A program made the translations under genes and the position numbers. From NCBI GenBank assembly GCA_014382665.1, contig JACNJH010000111.1, positions 1 through 43,026 on the forward strand: a DNA stretch of 43,026 bases, in the 5' to 3' direction. The first letter of the stretch is position 1, and the number at the start of each line of letters is the position of its first letter. Below are positions 15,258 to 41,700 of the stretch, piece by piece. Under the pieces are notes generated by a model that worked only from the letters and a program-made list of their open reading frames with translations, was not told the DNA's origin and searched no databases. The stretch comes from Candidatus Desulfatibia profunda. Lineage in GTDB: Bacteria > Desulfobacterota > Desulfobacteria > Desulfobacterales > UBA11574.

Positions 15258-16883
15258 TCAAAACAGGCGGACAAGTTCGTCGACCTCAAAGGCGGGCCAC
15301 TTGGCCGGGGCATCATGCCAAACAGCCTCAATTCCCCGGCCCGTACCCCTTACCTCACCGATACAGGTCACCTTAATTCCGGCATTTCGAATGCCAGCCA
15401 TGAGATTCTCACAAACGCTTTCCTGGCAACAGATCAAAAGGCTGCCCGAGCCGATCAGACCCAGGGGATCAATGTTGAGCAGGCGACCGATTTTTTGCGT
15501 CTGGGGAAAGTACGGAATCCTGCTGATATCGATTTTTATCCGGTGGCCGCCGGCGATACTCAACTCTTCCAGTGCCGTTGCCAGACCGCCCTCGGTAACA
15601 TCATGCATGGCGCTGACTCCGACAGTCTCGCCGGCAATTTTAGCTTCCTTCAGAATGCTGATTTCGGAAACAAACGCTTTGCTTTTTTCGATTTCAGCCT
15701 CCGGCAGACCCAGGCGTTTCAACCGGTCTTCAAATTTTCTAGCGATAATCGCCGTTCCTTCCACCGCAACGGCCTTGGTCAGCATGACTTTATCGCCGGG
15801 TTTCATGTTGCGCTTATCGATCAGGTCACGCCTGGCAACCGTTCCTGCCAGCATCCCCGCAACGACCGGTCGTGTGACCGCATCGGTGATTTCAGTGTGC
15901 CCGCCGCACAGCATGATGTCCCAGCGCCGGCAGGTCGATTCAAGCTCGTGCATCACCTGCCAAATTTCCGAGGGCGTAGTCCCGCATGGAAAAAGCAGCG
16001 TTGTCAACAGCCATCTGGGGATTGCTCCGGCGGTGGCTATGTCATTGGCATTTATCAGAACCGCATAATGCCCGATCGAATCGGTAACAAAGGTGATGGG
16101 ATCGGACTTGAGCACCAAGACTTCCGTTTCCTGAACATTTACCGCCGCCGTATCTTCGCCGATTCCCGGGGGTATCAGCACAGAGGCGTCCTGGAAATCG
16201 AATTCCTGGAGAAACATTTCCAGAATGTCATTGGGCAGCTTGCCCATTGACAGCGGGGAGCCGAAACGGACAATTGTTTTGAGCTCCTCCAGGCGCGAAA
16301 TTCTAAAATCACTTGCAATCTTGGATGGTCCGGAGTTCACCCCGTTATCGAGAAATGCCGTCAGACTTCCAGCCTCTTGACCGGCCTGGATGTCAAAGAA
16401 GAAATCCCCTACCATCAGCAGTTGGCCGACATCCACCTTCAGTTTTTGCGCTGCCAGCAGGATTCCGTCCGGATTCGGCTTGCGCTTGACCGGCGTTTCC
16501 CTGGTAATGATCAGGTCAAAATCGGACACGCCGATGGTGTTGAAATTCTGAAACGCCCGATTAATGGAATCAAGGGTGTTGCGAGTAATAATTCCAAGGG
16601 CGATGCCCTTTGAACGCAGATATGCAACCAGATCTTCGGCACCGACGTTGGGCTTCGAGTTCTCGGCCGCGTTCCTTTCAAAGCGCTCCAACACGTCGCG
16701 AGCTTCCTTTTGCCGGGCCGCGGTCGGCAGGCTTTGGATGAATTCGAGTACCAGTGCTTCCGGAGGACAGCCGATGGTCTGCTTTAACAGGGGAAAATCC
16801 AGAGCACCGGGCCTGGTCAGGGTGCCGTCGAAATCGAACAGGACGGCCTTGATGCAAAACGGTTTAAGGATCACAGGTTTCAT
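15258..16883 (-). CDS. HAD phosphatase fused to an AIR-synthase (HypE-like) domain
   Basis: A 541-residue two-domain protein. Residues about 10-215 are a HAD hydrolase: VLFDFDGTLT (nucleophile Asp), GIITRN (Thr motif), KPNPDGIL (Lys) and MVGDFFFDI (acidic motif). Residues about 220-541 are an AIR-synthase/HypE-like ATP-binding domain: PPGIGEDTAAV, LINANDIATAGAIPRW, CGGHTEITDAV, SAMHDVTEGGLATALEEL and LIGSGSLL. True HypE ends in a PRxC motif whose Cys carries the cyano group; this protein ends VDELVRLF and so is not a standard HypE. The substrate is unknown. ATG at 16883 is preferred over an in-frame TTG at 16889. It lies 11 bases after the glycerophosphodiesterase gene, so it is the third gene of an operon with map. 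Confidence 0.88.
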   Translation of the reverse strand: MKPVILKPFCIKAVLFDFDGTLTRPGALDFPLLKQTIGCPPEALVLEFIQSLPTAARQKEARDVLERFERNAAENSKPNVGAEDLVAYLRSKGIALGIITRNTLDSINRAFQNFNTIGVSDFDLIITRETPVKRKPNPDGILLAAQKLKVDVGQLLMVGDFFFDIQAGQEAGSLTAFLDNGVNSGPSKIASDFRISRLEELKTIVRFGSPLSMGKLPNDILEMFLQEFDFQDASVLIPPGIGEDTAAVNVQETEVLVLKSDPITFVTDSIGHYAVLINANDIATAGAIPRWLLTTLLFPCGTTPSEIWQVMHELESTCRRWDIMLCGGHTEITDAVTRPVVAGMLAGTVARRDLIDKRNMKPGDKVMLTKAVAVEGTAIIARKFEDRLKRLGLPEAEIEKSKAFVSEISILKEAKIAGETVGVSAMHDVTEGGLATALEELSIAGGHRIKIDISRIPYFPQTQKIGRLLNIDPLGLIGSGSLLICCQESVCENLMAGIRNAGIKVTCIGEVRGTGRGIEAVWHDAPAKWPAFEVDELVRLF

Positions 16884-16894
16884 AAGCAAACGCT

Positions 16895-24520: not shown

Positions 24521-24662
24521 CCTAAAAAATGAACTGTAACCTTTCAACACTATACGGGATCAAAAGGTTTTTGTAAATCGAAACGGTATCTGATAAAGAA
24601 CACACAGCCTGTTTTATATGTTACGACACAAATAATTGCACATCATAAAATTCATTTTAGCG

Positions 24663-26423
24663 ATGAAAATACTGCTGATATATCCATATTATCTTGAGCA
24701 GCGAGACCGTACTGAAGATGTGGTTGTTCCGCCGATCGGCATTTACTATGTCGGCGCCATGCTCAAGGAGCATCATTACGACGTTGAAATATTGAACTGG
24801 CACAGTATCAATGCAACCCCTGAAATTATCGAAAAGACCTTGTGTGAGAAGAAACCCGATGTCATCGGGTTCTCCATTCTGCAGGCCAACCGCTGGGGCG
24901 GCATCGAAATTGCGCGCATTGCAAAAAAAATCGATCCAAAGGTCAAGATTGTCTTTGGCGGTGTCAGCGCCACATTTTTATGGGAGCATTTTTTAACCCA
25001 TTTCCCCCAAATCGATGTTGTGGTGCTCGGTGAGGGTGAATACACCTTTTTAAACCTGGTGCGATGCCTTGAAAAGGGTAATGAACGTCGTCTGAAAAAC
25101 ATTAAAGGCATCGCTTATAGAAACGGCAGCAAAATCGTCCGCACAGAAACGGCACCTTTTATCCAGGATTTGGATCAACTGCCTGTTCCGGCAAAGTATT
25201 TTGAATACCGGCACCTGTCGTTAACCCGGGGATGCCCCGGCAAATGCAAATTTTGCGGGTCTCCTGAATTTTGGGGTGCCAAGGTCAGGTTTCATTCTAC
25301 CGACTACTTTGTTGACGAGCTTCAGCGTCTCTACGATAAAGGCATTACGTTTTTTTATTTTTCGGATGATACCTTCAGCGTCGACAAACAGCGCGTCATC
25401 GACATCTGCAAGAAAATCCTAAAAAGAAATCTCAAGATCACATGGGTTGCCATTTCACGGGTCAACTATATGAGCCCGGAGGTTTTTGAGTGGATGCGAA
25501 AGGCCGGCTGCATTCAAATCAGCTACGGCGTGGAAAGCGGCAGCGCCAAAATTCGAGCGGCGCTGAATAAAAAGATAAAGACCGCAGACATTGAAAAGGC
25601 TTTTGACATTACCTTGAAATACGGCATTCTGCCCCGCGCCTATTTCATCTACGGCTGCCCCGGAGAAAGCCGTGAAACCATCCGGGAAACCATCGATCTG
25701 ATTTCAAGAATCAAACCCCTGGTCATCCACTTTTTTATCCTTTCCATATTTCCGGGAACGGCGTTGTATACAAAGTTGAAAAAAAGATCGAAAATAACCG
25801 ATGACATCTGGCTGAATCGCATCGAGGATATCAAGTATTTTGAAACCGACCCTGCATTGTCCCGGGAGCTGGTCGTATCCTTTGGCCGAACACTGCAAGC
25901 CGAATACTGCCGGCAGCTTCCGGCCATTATCGATGCTGTTGAGCTTGTCGACAAAGAAGAATTTTACCCGCTGCATTCCGATTTTTGTTCACGCCTCGGG
26001 ATGACCTTTGACCATGGCGATTATGCCAAAATCGACGCCATCAAGGACAAAGAAACAATTGCCGCAAAACTATACCAAAAAGCGTTACAATACTATCCCA
26101 ACGCGCGCGCGTACCTGGGTCTGGGCATCATTCATCAAAAGAACCGGTCCTACGAACCCTCGATAAAGATCCTTTTGGAAGGGCTTGGGTATTTCCCGGA
26201 CGACGAGCAACTCAACCTCTGCCTGGGAGTCAGCCTCATGAATGTCGGTGAGTATCAGCAGGCGCTTACGTATTTGCTGAAATTTCAGCACTCACAGCAA
26301 GTTTTGGGCCTGATCACCGGATGCTACCAGGCCCTGAATGATGTTGAAAAGGCAGCGGCGATTCAAAAACGACTTCAATCCCTAAAACCGGAGAAGTCCG
26401 AATCCGGACCGGGTCAAGGCTAG
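24663..26423 (+). CDS. B12-binding-domain radical SAM protein with C-terminal TPRs
   Basis: A 586-residue protein. Residues about 1-140 form a cobalamin-binding-type domain (KILLIYPYYLEQ, VVPPIGIYYVGAML, KPDVIGFSI, VVVLGEGEYTF) lacking an obvious DxHxxG base. Residues about 180-400 are a radical SAM domain with LTRGCPGKCKFCG (CxxxCxxC, about 190-197) and YGVESGSAKIRAALNK. The C-terminal 140 residues (from about 455) hold TPR units. The family modifies lipids, cofactors or natural products; the reaction cannot be told. The ATG before KILLIYP is used; a TTG nine codons earlier is unlikely. Its TAG shares bases with the stop of the convergent FecR gene. Confidence 0.88.
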   Translation: MKILLIYPYYLEQRDRTEDVVVPPIGIYYVGAMLKEHHYDVEILNWHSINATPEIIEKTLCEKKPDVIGFSILQANRWGGIEIARIAKKIDPKVKIVFGGVSATFLWEHFLTHFPQIDVVVLGEGEYTFLNLVRCLEKGNERRLKNIKGIAYRNGSKIVRTETAPFIQDLDQLPVPAKYFEYRHLSLTRGCPGKCKFCGSPEFWGAKVRFHSTDYFVDELQRLYDKGITFFYFSDDTFSVDKQRVIDICKKILKRNLKITWVAISRVNYMSPEVFEWMRKAGCIQISYGVESGSAKIRAALNKKIKTADIEKAFDITLKYGILPRAYFIYGCPGESRETIRETIDLISRIKPLVIHFFILSIFPGTALYTKLKKRSKITDDIWLNRIEDIKYFETDPALSRELVVSFGRTLQAEYCRQLPAIIDAVELVDKEEFYPLHSDFCSRLGMTFDHGDYAKIDAIKDKETIAAKLYQKALQYYPNARAYLGLGIIHQKNRSYEPSIKILLEGLGYFPDDEQLNLCLGVSLMNVGEYQQALTYLLKFQHSQQVLGLITGCYQALNDVEKAAAIQKRLQSLKPEKSESGPGQG

Positions 26424-38222: not shown

Positions 38223-38417
38223 ATGAACCAGGAGATGGAATGCATGTGCCAGGAATGCGGCATATCGGTCTATCTTCCCAAAACCGACATTGCTCTGGAG
38301 GACCCGGCCAGCAGCGATTCGAAATTGCTGGACAGACTGCTTGCCTGTCAGAACTGCGGCGGTCAACTGGCGCTGGTGGGCAAGGCCGGAGACGAGCCTC
38401 ACTGCCGGCTCAAGTAA
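38223..38417 (+). CDS. small two-knuckle zinc-binding protein
   Basis: A 64-residue protein with CMCQECG (about 7-13) and CQNCGG (about 42-47) separated by a helical acidic segment. The CxxC pairs would make a single zinc ribbon. A good GAGGGGG site lies about 8 bases before ATG. Its role is unknown; it may be an accessory or regulatory protein. It is divergent from the kinase and some 210 bases upstream of the RiPP-type radical SAM gene. Confidence 0.65.
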   Translation: MNQEMECMCQECGISVYLPKTDIALEDPASSDSKLLDRLLACQNCGGQLALVGKAGDEPHCRLK

Positions 38418-38467
38418 GAAATTCGGATTCAAGCTTCGTTAACCCGGGGTTAGAAAAAGTTGGCCTG

Positions 38468-38660
38468 CTACAGGTAAAAAATTTCCGTTTCTTCATCTTC
38501 ATGCAGCATCCGGAGCGGCGCAACATCCATTTTGCATCGGTAGTTCGGGGATGTACCGTACAGGCGGCAGATCAGGGGCCTGACCGGATAAATCGAGCAA
38601 CCGGTCTCATTCAAGTCCGGAGAAATAAGTGTGCAAACCGATAGAAACCATAGGGGATTA
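38468..38660 (-). pseudogene. C-terminal fragment of a YkgJ-type cysteine-cluster gene
   Basis: The minus-strand frame reads LISPDLNETGCSIYPVRPLI, then CRLYGTSPNYRC and a tail to a stop at 38468. GCSIYPVRPLICRLYG is the hallmark end of the YkgJ/CxxCxxCC family. The N-terminal half with the other cysteines is absent. Upstream of it the DNA is the start of the radical SAM gene on the other strand. The fragment's DNA also supplies the ribosome site and GTG start of that gene. Confidence 0.6.
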
Positions 38661-40529
38661 TTAAAAAAGGTCGCGCTGATTTCAACTCCCTGGCCTCTTT
38701 TTAACCGTCCTTCAATCCAGATCGGCACGCTGAAGTCCTTTCTTGTATCACAGTTTCCCGACCTGAAGGTCGATGCCCATCATGCTTATTTAAAGGTCGC
38801 GGCCGCCATCGGTTACCCGATCTATCAGGCCGTCTCCGAGCAGACCTGGCTGGCGGAGAGCGTTTACGGTGCCCTCTTATTTCCCGAACGCCTCAAGTCT
38901 GTCAAAAAGGTCTTTCAGCGTCCGTCCGTCCGTCACCCCCTGTTGCGCAAGGTCCTATTCGAAACGCTGATTGCGCAAGTCGAAGCGGTTTCAAAAACCT
39001 TTATCAACAGCATCGGCTGGGGGCAATACCAGCTTGCGGGTTTTTCAATCTGCTTTTGTCAGCTCACCGCTTCCCTCTATTTTATCAAACAGATTAAGAA
39101 GCGCTTTCCGAATTTAACCATCGTTGTCGGCGGATCTATGTTTGCCGGCGAATCGATTCGCAATATTTTTGAAGTGTTTCCTGAAATAGATTTTGTGGTC
39201 AACGGCGAAGGGGAGATTCCTCTTAGCCGGTTGGTTCGTCATCTTTCCGGCTGCCGGCACCCGCAGGACATACCGCCGGTTCCGGGAATTGTCAGTGCTA
39301 AAAGCGCTGGAGACCATATGCCCATTGTTCTCAACCAGATGGAGGATTTGGCCGCTCTAAAGCGCCCGGATTACGATGACTACTTTGAACAGCTCAAATC
39401 GCTGGGCCTGAAAAAAACCTTCTTTCCAATCATCCCGGTGGAACTGTCACGGGGCTGCTGGTGGCAAAGATCACACGGCACCACCGGCCTTACCGGTTGT
39501 GCCTTTTGCAATCTGAACCTTCAGTGGGACGGGTATCGTTCCAAAGCCCCTTTGGAGGCGCTTTCTGAAATCGACACGCTTGTCAAAAAGCACAAGACCC
39601 TATCCGTGGCATTCATGGACAATCTGCTGCCGATAAAAGCTTCCGACAACATTTTCAGACAGCTTGCCCGCCTGGGAAAGGACTTTCGCCTGTTCGGAGA
39701 AATCCGGGCCTCTACCCCCAAATACATTTTAACGGCCATGCAGGCGGCCGGGATGGCGGAGGTCCAGATCGGTATCGAAGCGCTCAGTACCCGGCTTTTA
39801 AGCAAGCTCAACAAAGGGACAACCGCCATCCAGAATCTTGAAATTATGAAGCACTGTGAAGCTATGGGCATTGTCAATAGGTCGAATCTGATACTGCATT
39901 TCCCCGGAAGCGACGACCAAGATGTGGCCGAGACATTGCGGTGCCTGGATTTTGCGCTGCCGTTTCGCCCTTTAAAGCCCGTGCGGTTCTGGCTCGGTCA
40001 GGGCAGCCCGGTGTGGCAGGATCCTAAAGCTTTCGGGCTCAAAGCGGTCTTTAACCATCCCAATTATGCCGCCATCTTCGGACCGGAAATCAACCGTACC
40101 ATGCGCTTTACGCTCCAGGCCTATCGCGGCGACCTGGGGCATCAGAAAAAACTCTGGCAGCCGGTTGTAAAAAAACTCAAGGAATGGAAAAGCTCGTATG
40201 CCGATCTTTATAAGAGTCCCGCCGCCGGGCACATCCTCAGCTATCGGGACGGATGCGACTTTTTGATGATTCGCCAGAAACGCGTCGGAAACGAACCTTT
40301 AATCCACCGGCTGGAGGGAACATCCAGGGCGATTTACCTTTTTTGTGAACACCACCGTTCGATCAAAAGTATCGCAGGCCATTTTCCGGGGATGCCGACA
40401 GACAAAATATTGGCGTTTTTAAACATGATGGCAGCCAAGAAATTGATGTTTGCAGAAAACGGCAAATACCTGGGCCTGGCCGTGCCGGCAAGATCCCACC
40501 ATCAAGCACATCCTGGTTTTGCATTATAA
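38631..40529 (+). CDS. RiPP-maturation-type B12/radical SAM protein (rSAM 1 family)
   Basis: A 632-residue protein that resembles the 'RiPP maturation radical SAM protein 1' family. The N-terminal B12-like domain has KKVALISTPWPLFNRPSIQI, KVAAAIGYPIYQAVSEQTW and VVGGSMFAGES...VVNGEGEIPL. The radical SAM core has VELSRGCWWQRSHG and TGCAFCNLN. The cluster cysteines are C276, C290 and C293 (C-x13-C-x2-C), where relatives have C-x7-C-x2-C. EVQIGIEALSTRLLSKLNKG follows. The C-terminus (LSYRDGCDFLMIRQKR, FCEHHRSIKSIAGHFPG) is a small winged-helix-like domain that may bind a leader peptide. The GTG start has GGAG 8 bases upstream. No precursor peptide gene is evident nearby. Confidence 0.82.
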   Translation: MQTDRNHRGLLKKVALISTPWPLFNRPSIQIGTLKSFLVSQFPDLKVDAHHAYLKVAAAIGYPIYQAVSEQTWLAESVYGALLFPERLKSVKKVFQRPSVRHPLLRKVLFETLIAQVEAVSKTFINSIGWGQYQLAGFSICFCQLTASLYFIKQIKKRFPNLTIVVGGSMFAGESIRNIFEVFPEIDFVVNGEGEIPLSRLVRHLSGCRHPQDIPPVPGIVSAKSAGDHMPIVLNQMEDLAALKRPDYDDYFEQLKSLGLKKTFFPIIPVELSRGCWWQRSHGTTGLTGCAFCNLNLQWDGYRSKAPLEALSEIDTLVKKHKTLSVAFMDNLLPIKASDNIFRQLARLGKDFRLFGEIRASTPKYILTAMQAAGMAEVQIGIEALSTRLLSKLNKGTTAIQNLEIMKHCEAMGIVNRSNLILHFPGSDDQDVAETLRCLDFALPFRPLKPVRFWLGQGSPVWQDPKAFGLKAVFNHPNYAAIFGPEINRTMRFTLQAYRGDLGHQKKLWQPVVKKLKEWKSSYADLYKSPAAGHILSYRDGCDFLMIRQKRVGNEPLIHRLEGTSRAIYLFCEHHRSIKSIAGHFPGMPTDKILAFLNMMAAKKLMFAENGKYLGLAVPARSHHQAHPGFAL

Positions 40530-40704
40530 ACGGTTTTAACCGGCGGTAATGCCAAAATCCGGCCGCGTTTATTTTTCTAAAGTAACATTTTCTTTGAACC
40601 GATATTATCTATAATAGCAATCCTAAAACAAATATACCATGTTTGGCAATATTTGGTGTCATCGTAAACACTTAACCAATCGACCATTCAACGCTGGTTG
40701 CAAT

Positions 40705-41700
40705 ATGAGCTGCAAACGGACTTTTTTTATTCTTACTTTGATTTTTTGCTTCAAGGCTGCTGACCTTCGGGCCGACGTCTGCTCCCAAATAGACGAAAAT
40801 GGCGTCAAAAGCTTTCCCGAGACCCAGCTTGTGCAAGCTGATGCAGTAGACGGGCGGCAAAAGATCTTACCGGATAAACCGGACATGACTGCGGAACTTG
40901 CTGAAGCCGCATCATCAGCACATATCACCCGCAATGAATTTTCAAAAAAGGCCCCGGCCGAGACCAAATTTATCATGGACAAACACCTCCGGGTTCCGGT
41001 CCGGATCGTCTATCACGGGCAAGTCTTTACGACCCTGTTCGAGCTGGACACCGGCGCAGCCCACACGGTGGTATCACAGGATCTGGCAGAGAAGATGGGG
41101 GTACAGGAAACACGGTTTGCCGGCCAAGGATCCCTTTCGGACGTGAAAGCATCTGCAACTGCATTCAAGGTGTCGAGCATCGCGGTGGGACCGCTTGAGC
41201 GCAAGGATTATCCGGTTTATGTTCTTCACTCGAGCCAAAAGGGATGGTCGAAACTAAAAGGGATAAATATCTTGGGCATGGACCTTTTAAAGGAATTACC
41301 TTTTTGCGTTGATTTCCAAGCCGGCGTGATTCGGTGGGGCAACGATCCGGCCGACAGTGCCGCGCTGCAGATAAATACCAAGGCTGTTATAAAGGACGTT
41401 CGGATATTTCTGCCTGTTCATATTGTTTACAACGGTCAAATTTACAAAGAAATGTTCTTGCTCGACACAGGTTCGGCCCAGACATTCGTGACACCTGCTT
41501 TTGCAAAAATGTTGGGGATAACGGATGTCCGCCAGGGTCGCAGGATTAAGCTGTCAAGGATACAGGCGGGTCCGCTTGAGATGAAGGACTATCATATTGG
41601 GATATGGAATACACCGAATAATCTGATCGGCCTGGATCTGCTGAGATACACAACCTTTACCATCGATTATGCAGCGGGTATCATTCGATGGAATCTATAA
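40705..41700 (+). CDS. exported protein with two tandem retropepsin-like aspartic protease domains
   Basis: 331 residues. A signal peptide (TFFILTLIFCFKAADLRA) is followed by a DUF4124-like segment (CSQIDENGVKSFPE). Two copies of a retropepsin-like domain follow (about 88-210 and 225-331). Each has a VP/LPVxIVYxGQ strand, an xLDTGxA active-site loop (Asp115 in FELDTGAAHTVVS; Asp254 in FLLDTGSAQTFVT), GPLExKDY and LxGxDLL before the final strand. Retropepsins normally act as homodimers, each giving one Asp. A duplicated single chain could form a complete periplasmic protease. The start is ATG 40705 by the signal peptide; an upstream ATG at 40639 lacks a ribosome site. Confidence 0.85.
   Translation: MSCKRTFFILTLIFCFKAADLRADVCSQIDENGVKSFPETQLVQADAVDGRQKILPDKPDMTAELAEAASSAHITRNEFSKKAPAETKFIMDKHLRVPVRIVYHGQVFTTLFELDTGAAHTVVSQDLAEKMGVQETRFAGQGSLSDVKASATAFKVSSIAVGPLERKDYPVYVLHSSQKGWSKLKGINILGMDLLKELPFCVDFQAGVIRWGNDPADSAALQINTKAVIKDVRIFLPVHIVYNGQIYKEMFLLDTGSAQTFVTPAFAKMLGITDVRQGRRIKLSRIQAGPLEMKDYHIGIWNTPNNLIGLDLLRYTTFTIDYAAGIIRWNL

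What the first reader, a model, noticed from the sequence alone, without database searches (positions are those of the whole stretch)
38631..40529. RiPP-type radical SAM enzyme with a stretched C-x13-C-x2-C cluster motif
The whole protein follows the layout I associate with the RiPP maturation rSAM 1 family: RGCWW before the cluster and a C-terminal winged-helix-like segment. The spacing between the first two cluster cysteines is 13 residues, with an insert rich in Gly/Thr/Ser (HGTTGLTG), against 7 in relatives I know. No standard precursor is adjacent. The system may use a remote or unrecognised short precursor, or modify a protein.
Basis: partly seen in the sequence, partly recalled or inferred. 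Interest (0 to 1): 0.75.

Follow-up and report, generated by a model that had tools for sequence, protein, structure and literature searches.

The report
Stand-alone B12 radical-SAM methyltransferase of sulfate reducers
The gene encodes an intact vitamin-B12/radical-SAM methylating enzyme whose odd long cysteine spacing is only a variable surface loop; the more interesting point is that it belongs to a branch inherited as a lone gene across sulfate-reducing bacteria with no peptide precursor beside it, so it may methylate a conserved cell protein rather than make a peptide natural product.

Summary
In detail: the 632-aa protein at 38631-40529 has C276-x13-C290-x2-C293, RGCWW and a C-terminal winged helix, and passes TIGR03975 full length (359 bits, cut-off 281.85). 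The stretch is natural: 13 is the commonest spacing among 97 orthologues, but these range from 4 to 21 residues, and the insert is Cys-free, Gly/Ser/Lys/Arg-rich and hardly conserved. It is a tolerated flexible loop, not a new cluster type. The orthologues form one clade (100% SH-aLRT) apart from canonical C-x7-CxFCGLN members, marked by CxFCNLNLQW. The gene is single-copy and inherited vertically. Its neighbourhoods differ, no short ORF recurs beside it across families, and it shows no association with Nif11/NHLP precursors, whereas some canonical members sit beside precursors. The predicted fold is a B12-radical-SAM methyltransferase with a winged-helix domain whose top matches, just above background, are leader-binding RREs. 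Best reading: a C-methyltransferase acting on one conserved polypeptide encoded elsewhere, perhaps a host protein as MgmA does with MCR. The substrate is unknown.

The parts
38631..40529 (+). B12-binding/radical SAM protein, 632 aa, GTG start; member of a Desulfobacterota clade inside TIGR03975
38619..38622 (+). GGAG, likely ribosome-binding site 8 nt before the GTG
   Evidence: sequence, (inference)
38667..39260 (+). N-terminal cobalamin-binding-type (Rossmann) domain, residues 13-210
   Evidence: Pfam B12-binding 22.4 bits over residues 114-201, under the gathering score of 32.1; structure match to TsrM/OxsB/TokK
39366..40205 (+). Radical SAM TIM-barrel domain, residues 246-525
   Evidence: Pfam Radical_SAM 43.1 bits, gathering score 29.5
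39456..39509 (+). cluster motif C276-x13-C290-x2-C293
   Evidence: the three Cys are conserved in clade and canonical sets
39465..39497 (+). variable loop insert, residues 279-289 (QRSHGTTGLTG)
   Evidence: spacing 4-21 in 97 orthologues; about 22% identity against 52% in the surrounding domain
40227..40490 (+). C-terminal winged-helix, RRE-like domain, residues 533-620
   Evidence: (best Z 8.8 to leader-binding protein TbiB1)

Best explanation
A cobalamin-dependent radical SAM C-methyltransferase. SAM first methylates cob(I)alamin; a second SAM, bound to the [4Fe-4S] cluster held by C276/C290/C293, is cleaved to a 5'-deoxyadenosyl radical, which takes a hydrogen from an unactivated carbon of the substrate; the carbon radical takes the methyl group from methylcobalamin. 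The substrate is most likely a polypeptide segment held by the C-terminal winged-helix domain, encoded elsewhere in the genome and conserved by descent, more likely a host protein than a secreted peptide product. The long Cys1-Cys2 segment is a solvent-exposed loop of tolerated length. Shown here by computation: fold, cluster residues, clade, loop variability, vertical single-copy inheritance, no conserved neighbour. Inferred from relatives: cobalamin use and methyl-transfer chemistry. Inferred and open: that the substrate is a host protein.
For: TIGR03975 (C-methyltransferases) at 359 bits, full length; AF2 model of mean pLDDT 85 whose nearest solved structures are B12-radical-SAM enzymes (TsrM Z 20.8, TokK 20.5, CysS 20.4, OxsB 20.3, MgmA 18.4). 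One clade at 100% SH-aLRT, 95 orthologues; taxonomic families need 48 label changes on the tree against a minimum of 47, and a mean of 80 (lowest 76) when shuffled; one intact copy per genome as a rule. Neighbours are varied, mostly housekeeping genes by inspection, and recur only within families; no short ORF within 2 kb recurs across more than two families, the best case being response-regulator-like. The C-terminal domain is nearly as conserved as the catalytic domain in the clade (48% vs 52%) but not in canonical members (27% vs 43%), as expected for one constant partner. Its best structural matches are the RREs TbiB1 with leader peptide (Z 8.8, 8.6) and TigE (8.2).
Against: No substrate identified. 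RRE likeness is marginal: ordinary winged helices score Z 7-8, Foldseek gives no hit at E<=0.001, and Pfam PqqD touches 2 of 14 members at best E 0.11. Seven canonical-bearing genomes also lack Nif11 leaders, so lack of a known precursor is not unique to this clade. Precursors of an undescribed family far from the gene cannot be excluded. Small-molecule or lipid substrates are not excluded.
Confidence: 0.5

Rival explanations
1. A true RiPP maturase acting in trans on a small precursor peptide encoded far from it, of a family not yet described.
For: TIGR03975 membership by score; RRE-like C-terminal domain; some canonical members sit beside precursors (Nif11, pheganomycin family).
Against: Nif11 or NHLP leaders occur in 4 of 82 orthologue-bearing genomes of the order against 17 of 160 others (Fisher p 0.15, no positive association), and not in the window's own genome. 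No protease, transporter or second maturase recurs beside it. Vertical single-copy inheritance over a phylum is unusual for RiPP clusters.
Confidence: 0.27
2. A C-methyltransferase of a small molecule, lipid or cofactor (as TokK, HpnR or BchE-like enzymes act), with the winged helix only structural.
For: Nearest folds include TokK, CysS and OxsB, which act on small or carrier-bound molecules; lower-scoring HMM hits include BchE and HpnR; stand-alone gene.
Against: The best family by far is the peptide-modifying one (359 bits against 64); the C-terminal winged helix shared with that family is retained and highly conserved.
Confidence: 0.18
3. The long Cys1-Cys2 segment defines a new cluster-binding or gating mechanism.
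For: Length of 13 is the mode (52 of 97) and the insert is biased to Lys/Arg/Gly (mean net charge +2.7), which could suit an acidic partner.
Against: 22 orthologues have only 4 residues there, all in one subclade reached by a single change on the tree, with the rest of the motif the same; no Cys and no conserved position in the insert. In the window the insert has net charge +1 only.
Confidence: 0.05

Closest known systems
RiPP maturation radical SAM C-methyltransferase, TIGR03975 (rSAM_ocin_1)
   Same: Full-length HMM match above cut-off; RGCWW, PDYDDYFE, CxFCxLN, GIE..S, KG motifs; B12-type domain + radical SAM + C-terminal winged helix.
   Different: Scores 337-366 bits against 613-730 in canonical members; FCNLN instead of FCGLN (N294 95/95 vs G 21/21); spacing 4-21 instead of 7; no precursor or partner genes nearby.
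PoyB/PoyC (polytheonamide) C-methyltransferases
   Same: B12-radical SAM with an expanded Cys1-Cys2 spacing (Cx7Cx2C; PMC5682303, PMC11285071) acting on a peptide.
   Different: In a RiPP operon with precursor; spacing of 7. Sequences not compared here.
MgmA (methyl-coenzyme M reductase glutamine C-methyltransferase, 9ccb)
   Same: B12-radical SAM fold (Z 18.4); modifies a conserved host enzyme in vivo (PMC11796369), the model proposed here.
   Different: 417-residue chain, aligned only up to residue 530 of ours, so without the C-terminal winged helix; archaeal; 18% identity. TIGR04014 matches ours at only 35 bits.
TsrM, OxsB, TokK, CysS
   Same: Nearest solved folds (Z 19-21).
   Different: 12-20% identity; TsrM has the usual CX3CX2C (PMC8992657); small-molecule or carrier-bound substrates.

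Membership tests
TIGR03975 (NCBIfam subfamily) | Score at or above curated cut-off over the whole model | tested here: met
   359 bits against 281.85, model 1-606; six distant orthologues 337-366
TIGR03975 (NCBIfam subfamily) | C-x7-C-x2-C with FCGLN, as in canonical members | tested here: not met
   C-x13-C-x2-C with FCNLN; orthologues 4-21; canonical members read here have 7, with one short exception, L043
TIGR03975 as a RiPP system | Association with leader peptides TIGR03793 or TIGR03798, or another short precursor beside the gene | tested here: not met
   positive examples; but canonical genomes without Nif11 also exist
Radical SAM superfamily | Radical_SAM domain and three cluster cysteines | tested here: met
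   Pfam PF04055 43.1 bits; C276, C290, C293 conserved in clade and canonical sets
Class B (cobalamin-dependent) radical SAM enzymes | N-terminal cobalamin-binding domain | tested here: inconclusive
   PF02310 22.4 bits, under its gathering score of 32.1; the predicted fold aligns with B12-radical-SAM enzymes from residue 10 on. Cobalamin binding itself not testable here
Class B radical SAM methyltransferases | Methyl transfer through methylcobalamin | not testable with these tools
   needs purified protein
RiPP recognition element (RRE/PqqD-like) | b3-a3 winged helix that binds a leader peptide | tested here: inconclusive
   fold order fits; best Z 8.8 to TbiB1-leader complex, little above generic winged helices; PqqD best E 0.11 in 2 of 14 members

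The most novel reading that the evidence does not exclude
The clade is a non-RiPP branch of the TIGR03975/PoyC-type family that C-methylates a conserved host protein in sulfate-reducing Desulfobacterota, a bacterial counterpart of MgmA/Mmp10 acting on MCR, with a leader-binding-like domain re-used to hold one cellular protein.
Probability: 0.35. Interest if true: 0.72.

Novelty: new variant of a known kind. Interest (0 to 1): 0.45.

Why it matters
Curated annotation would name this whole clade 'RiPP maturation' enzymes, although nothing around them looks like a RiPP cluster. If they methylate a conserved protein, a hidden carbon-methylation is widespread in sulfate-reducing bacteria, and it can be found by ordinary proteomics. 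The clade also gives a natural series (4 to 21 residues) showing how freely the loop after the first radical-SAM cysteine can vary in one orthologous enzyme.

Tried and rejected
Insert as artefact: rejected, 52 of 97 independent orthologues have the same length. Giant fusion in G187 (open frame 3107 aa): rejected, the frame runs into 8000 masked N. Local precursor: a permissive comparison of 744 short ORFs in 84 loci found none shared beyond two families. Known precursors genome-wide in the order: no association. Link to sulfate reduction: dsrA is in 53 of 55 orthologue-bearing genomes of the phylum sample against 137 of 340 others, but within the order there is no signal (53/54 vs 86/93 good genomes, p 0.26) and many dsrA-bearing genomes lack the gene, so this may be shared ancestry only. 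Link to the Wood-Ljungdahl pathway: CdhC in 39/40 with and 37/40 without the gene, no discrimination. Occurrence in Nitrospirota: 51 genomes gave only canonical C-x7 members. The scan of genome contigs used exact peptide patterns and returned few close relatives, so restriction to one phylum is not proved. Profile search of the C-terminal domain against solved structures gave no credible RRE hit.

Full report
Observation. The ORF at 38631-40529 (+) is 632 aa, starts with GTG behind GGAG, and is intact. Cysteines 276, 290 and 293 give C-x13-C-x2-C inside SRGCWWQRSHGTTGLTGCAFCNLNLQW. The protein matches TIGR03975 over its full length with 359 bits against a cut-off of 281.85; the next family, BchE, has 64 bits. 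Pfam finds Radical_SAM above and B12-binding below its gathering score.

Relatives. In a sample of 242 genomes of the same order, 87 have a match at E <= 1e-40; five of these are only 27-33% identical, canonical-type enzymes (G005, G099, G107, G132, G196), which leaves 82 with an orthologue. In 395 genomes across the phylum 55 have one. There is one intact copy per genome as a rule; a few genomes carry split pieces or an additional 25-30% identical canonical paralogue. I fetched about 100 neighbourhoods. A tree built without the insert columns puts 95 orthologues on one side of a branch with 100% SH-aLRT and 21 canonical TIGR03975 proteins on the other (quick method, no bootstrap). The 48 taxonomic families in the clade need 48 label changes, one more than the minimum, against a mean of 80 and a lowest value of 76 in shuffles. 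Inheritance is therefore essentially vertical, with losses: 44 of 45 re-checked genomes without a strong hit have no orthologue, including two of the genus of G392 and G481; the forty-fifth, G545, does carry it.

The stretched motif. In 97 orthologues the Cys1-Cys2 spacing is 4 (22), 8-9 (5), 11-12 (4), 13 (52), 14 (4), 15 (4), 17 (4) and 21 (2). The 4-residue form is separated from the longer ones by a single change on the tree. The insert of the longer forms has no Cys, is rich in Gly, Ser, Lys and Arg (mean net charge +2.7), poor in hydrophobic residues, and about 22% identical against 52% for the radical SAM domain. AlphaFold gives the stretch 281-300 a mean pLDDT of 57-58 in a model of mean 85. 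I read it as a flexible surface loop whose length is free to vary. Canonical members read here have C-x7-C-x2-C with FCGLN, with a short exception in L043; PoyB and PoyC are published with Cx7Cx2C (PMC5682303, PMC11285071). Departures from CX3CX2C are 'not unusual' (PMC8992657).

What marks the clade. N294 (95/95 against Gly in 21/21), W299, R359 (Lys in most canonical), G456, H476, W509, G541 and others are invariant or nearly so in the clade and different in canonical members. The whole clade, as far as tested, scores 337-366 bits on TIGR03975 against 613-730 for canonical proteins: it passes the cut-off as a separate, more distant branch.

Surroundings. Neighbours differ from family to family and are mostly housekeeping genes; recurrent ones (YkgJ-type, WbqC-like, TerB-like, PyrD, a 115-aa protein) recur only among close genomes (names by inspection unless Pfam is cited). 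A permissive comparison of 744 short ORFs within 2 kb of 84 loci found none shared beyond two families. Nif11 leaders (TIGR03798) occur in 14 and NHLP leaders (TIGR03793) in 8 of the 242 genomes of the order, in 4 of 82 orthologue-bearing genomes and 17 of 160 others, so there is no positive association; the window's genome has neither. As a positive control, canonical TIGR03975 genes lie beside Nif11 precursors in Sinorhizobium, near one in Mesorhizobium, and beside a pheganomycin-type precursor in Streptomyces. A caution: seven other canonical-bearing genomes have no Nif11 leader either, so this control is mixed.

Structure. The model's best solved neighbours are TsrM, TokK, CysS, OxsB, AprD4 and MgmA (Z 18-21), which fixes the architecture: cobalamin-type Rossmann domain, radical SAM barrel, extra C-terminal domain. 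The C-terminal domain folded alone (pLDDT 86) is b-b-b-a-a-a-b-b. Its best matches are TbiB1 with lasso leader peptides (Z 8.8 and 8.6, about 75 residues at 2.5 A) and the N-terminal domain of TigE (8.2, 73 residues at 2.6 A), with ordinary winged helices at 7-8; Foldseek and profile searches give no significant RRE match. An RRE-like role is therefore plausible but not shown. In the clade this domain is nearly as conserved as the catalytic one (48% against 52%), in canonical members much less (27% against 43%), which fits one constant partner in the clade and changing leaders elsewhere.

Mechanism. From established chemistry of class B radical SAM methyltransferases (PMC5682303 for PoyC), the enzyme should methylate an sp3 carbon, using one SAM for methylcobalamin and one for the 5'-deoxyadenosyl radical. 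I commit to a polypeptide substrate encoded elsewhere, more likely a conserved host protein; MgmA, which methylates MCR in vivo (PMC11796369), is the model. That last step is inference.

Physiology. dsrA is found in 53 of 55 orthologue-bearing genomes of the phylum sample and 137 of 340 others, but within the order the signal disappears, and CdhC does not discriminate. The clade lives in sulfate-reducing lineages; a functional link is not shown. In 51 Nitrospirota genomes only canonical members were found.

Verdict. The sequence oddity is real but explained as a variable loop. What remains of interest is a phylum-wide, stand-alone, vertically inherited methyltransferase branch that carries a RiPP name without a RiPP context.

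Noticed in passing
window 38465-38740 (-) and 38621-38687: Truncated remnant of a CxxCxxCC/YkgJ-type gene that is intact in the closest relative (L050); about 340 bp present in L050 between that gene and the radical SAM gene are missing here, so the GTG start and its upstream region lie at the deletion junction and expression may be altered in this genome.
   Followed up: partly
window 38223-38417 (+): 64-aa ORF with CxxC-type cysteine pairs, conserved upstream of the radical SAM gene in nine loci of the same family only.
   Followed up: partly
window 24636-26423 (+): A second B12-binding radical SAM protein (both Pfam domains above cut-off), only 25% identical to the one studied over the shared part.
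   Followed up: no
window 40639-41700 (+): Protein with two retroviral-type aspartyl protease domains in tandem, just downstream; not a recurrent neighbour in relatives by the survey.
   Followed up: no
window 15258-16889 (-): One 543-aa frame joins a HAD hydrolase domain to an AIR-synthase/SelD-like domain pair.
   Followed up: no
G392, G481 with and G439, G591 without the gene (same genus code g243): Recent losses inside one genus, useful for comparing proteomes with and without the enzyme.
   Followed up: partly
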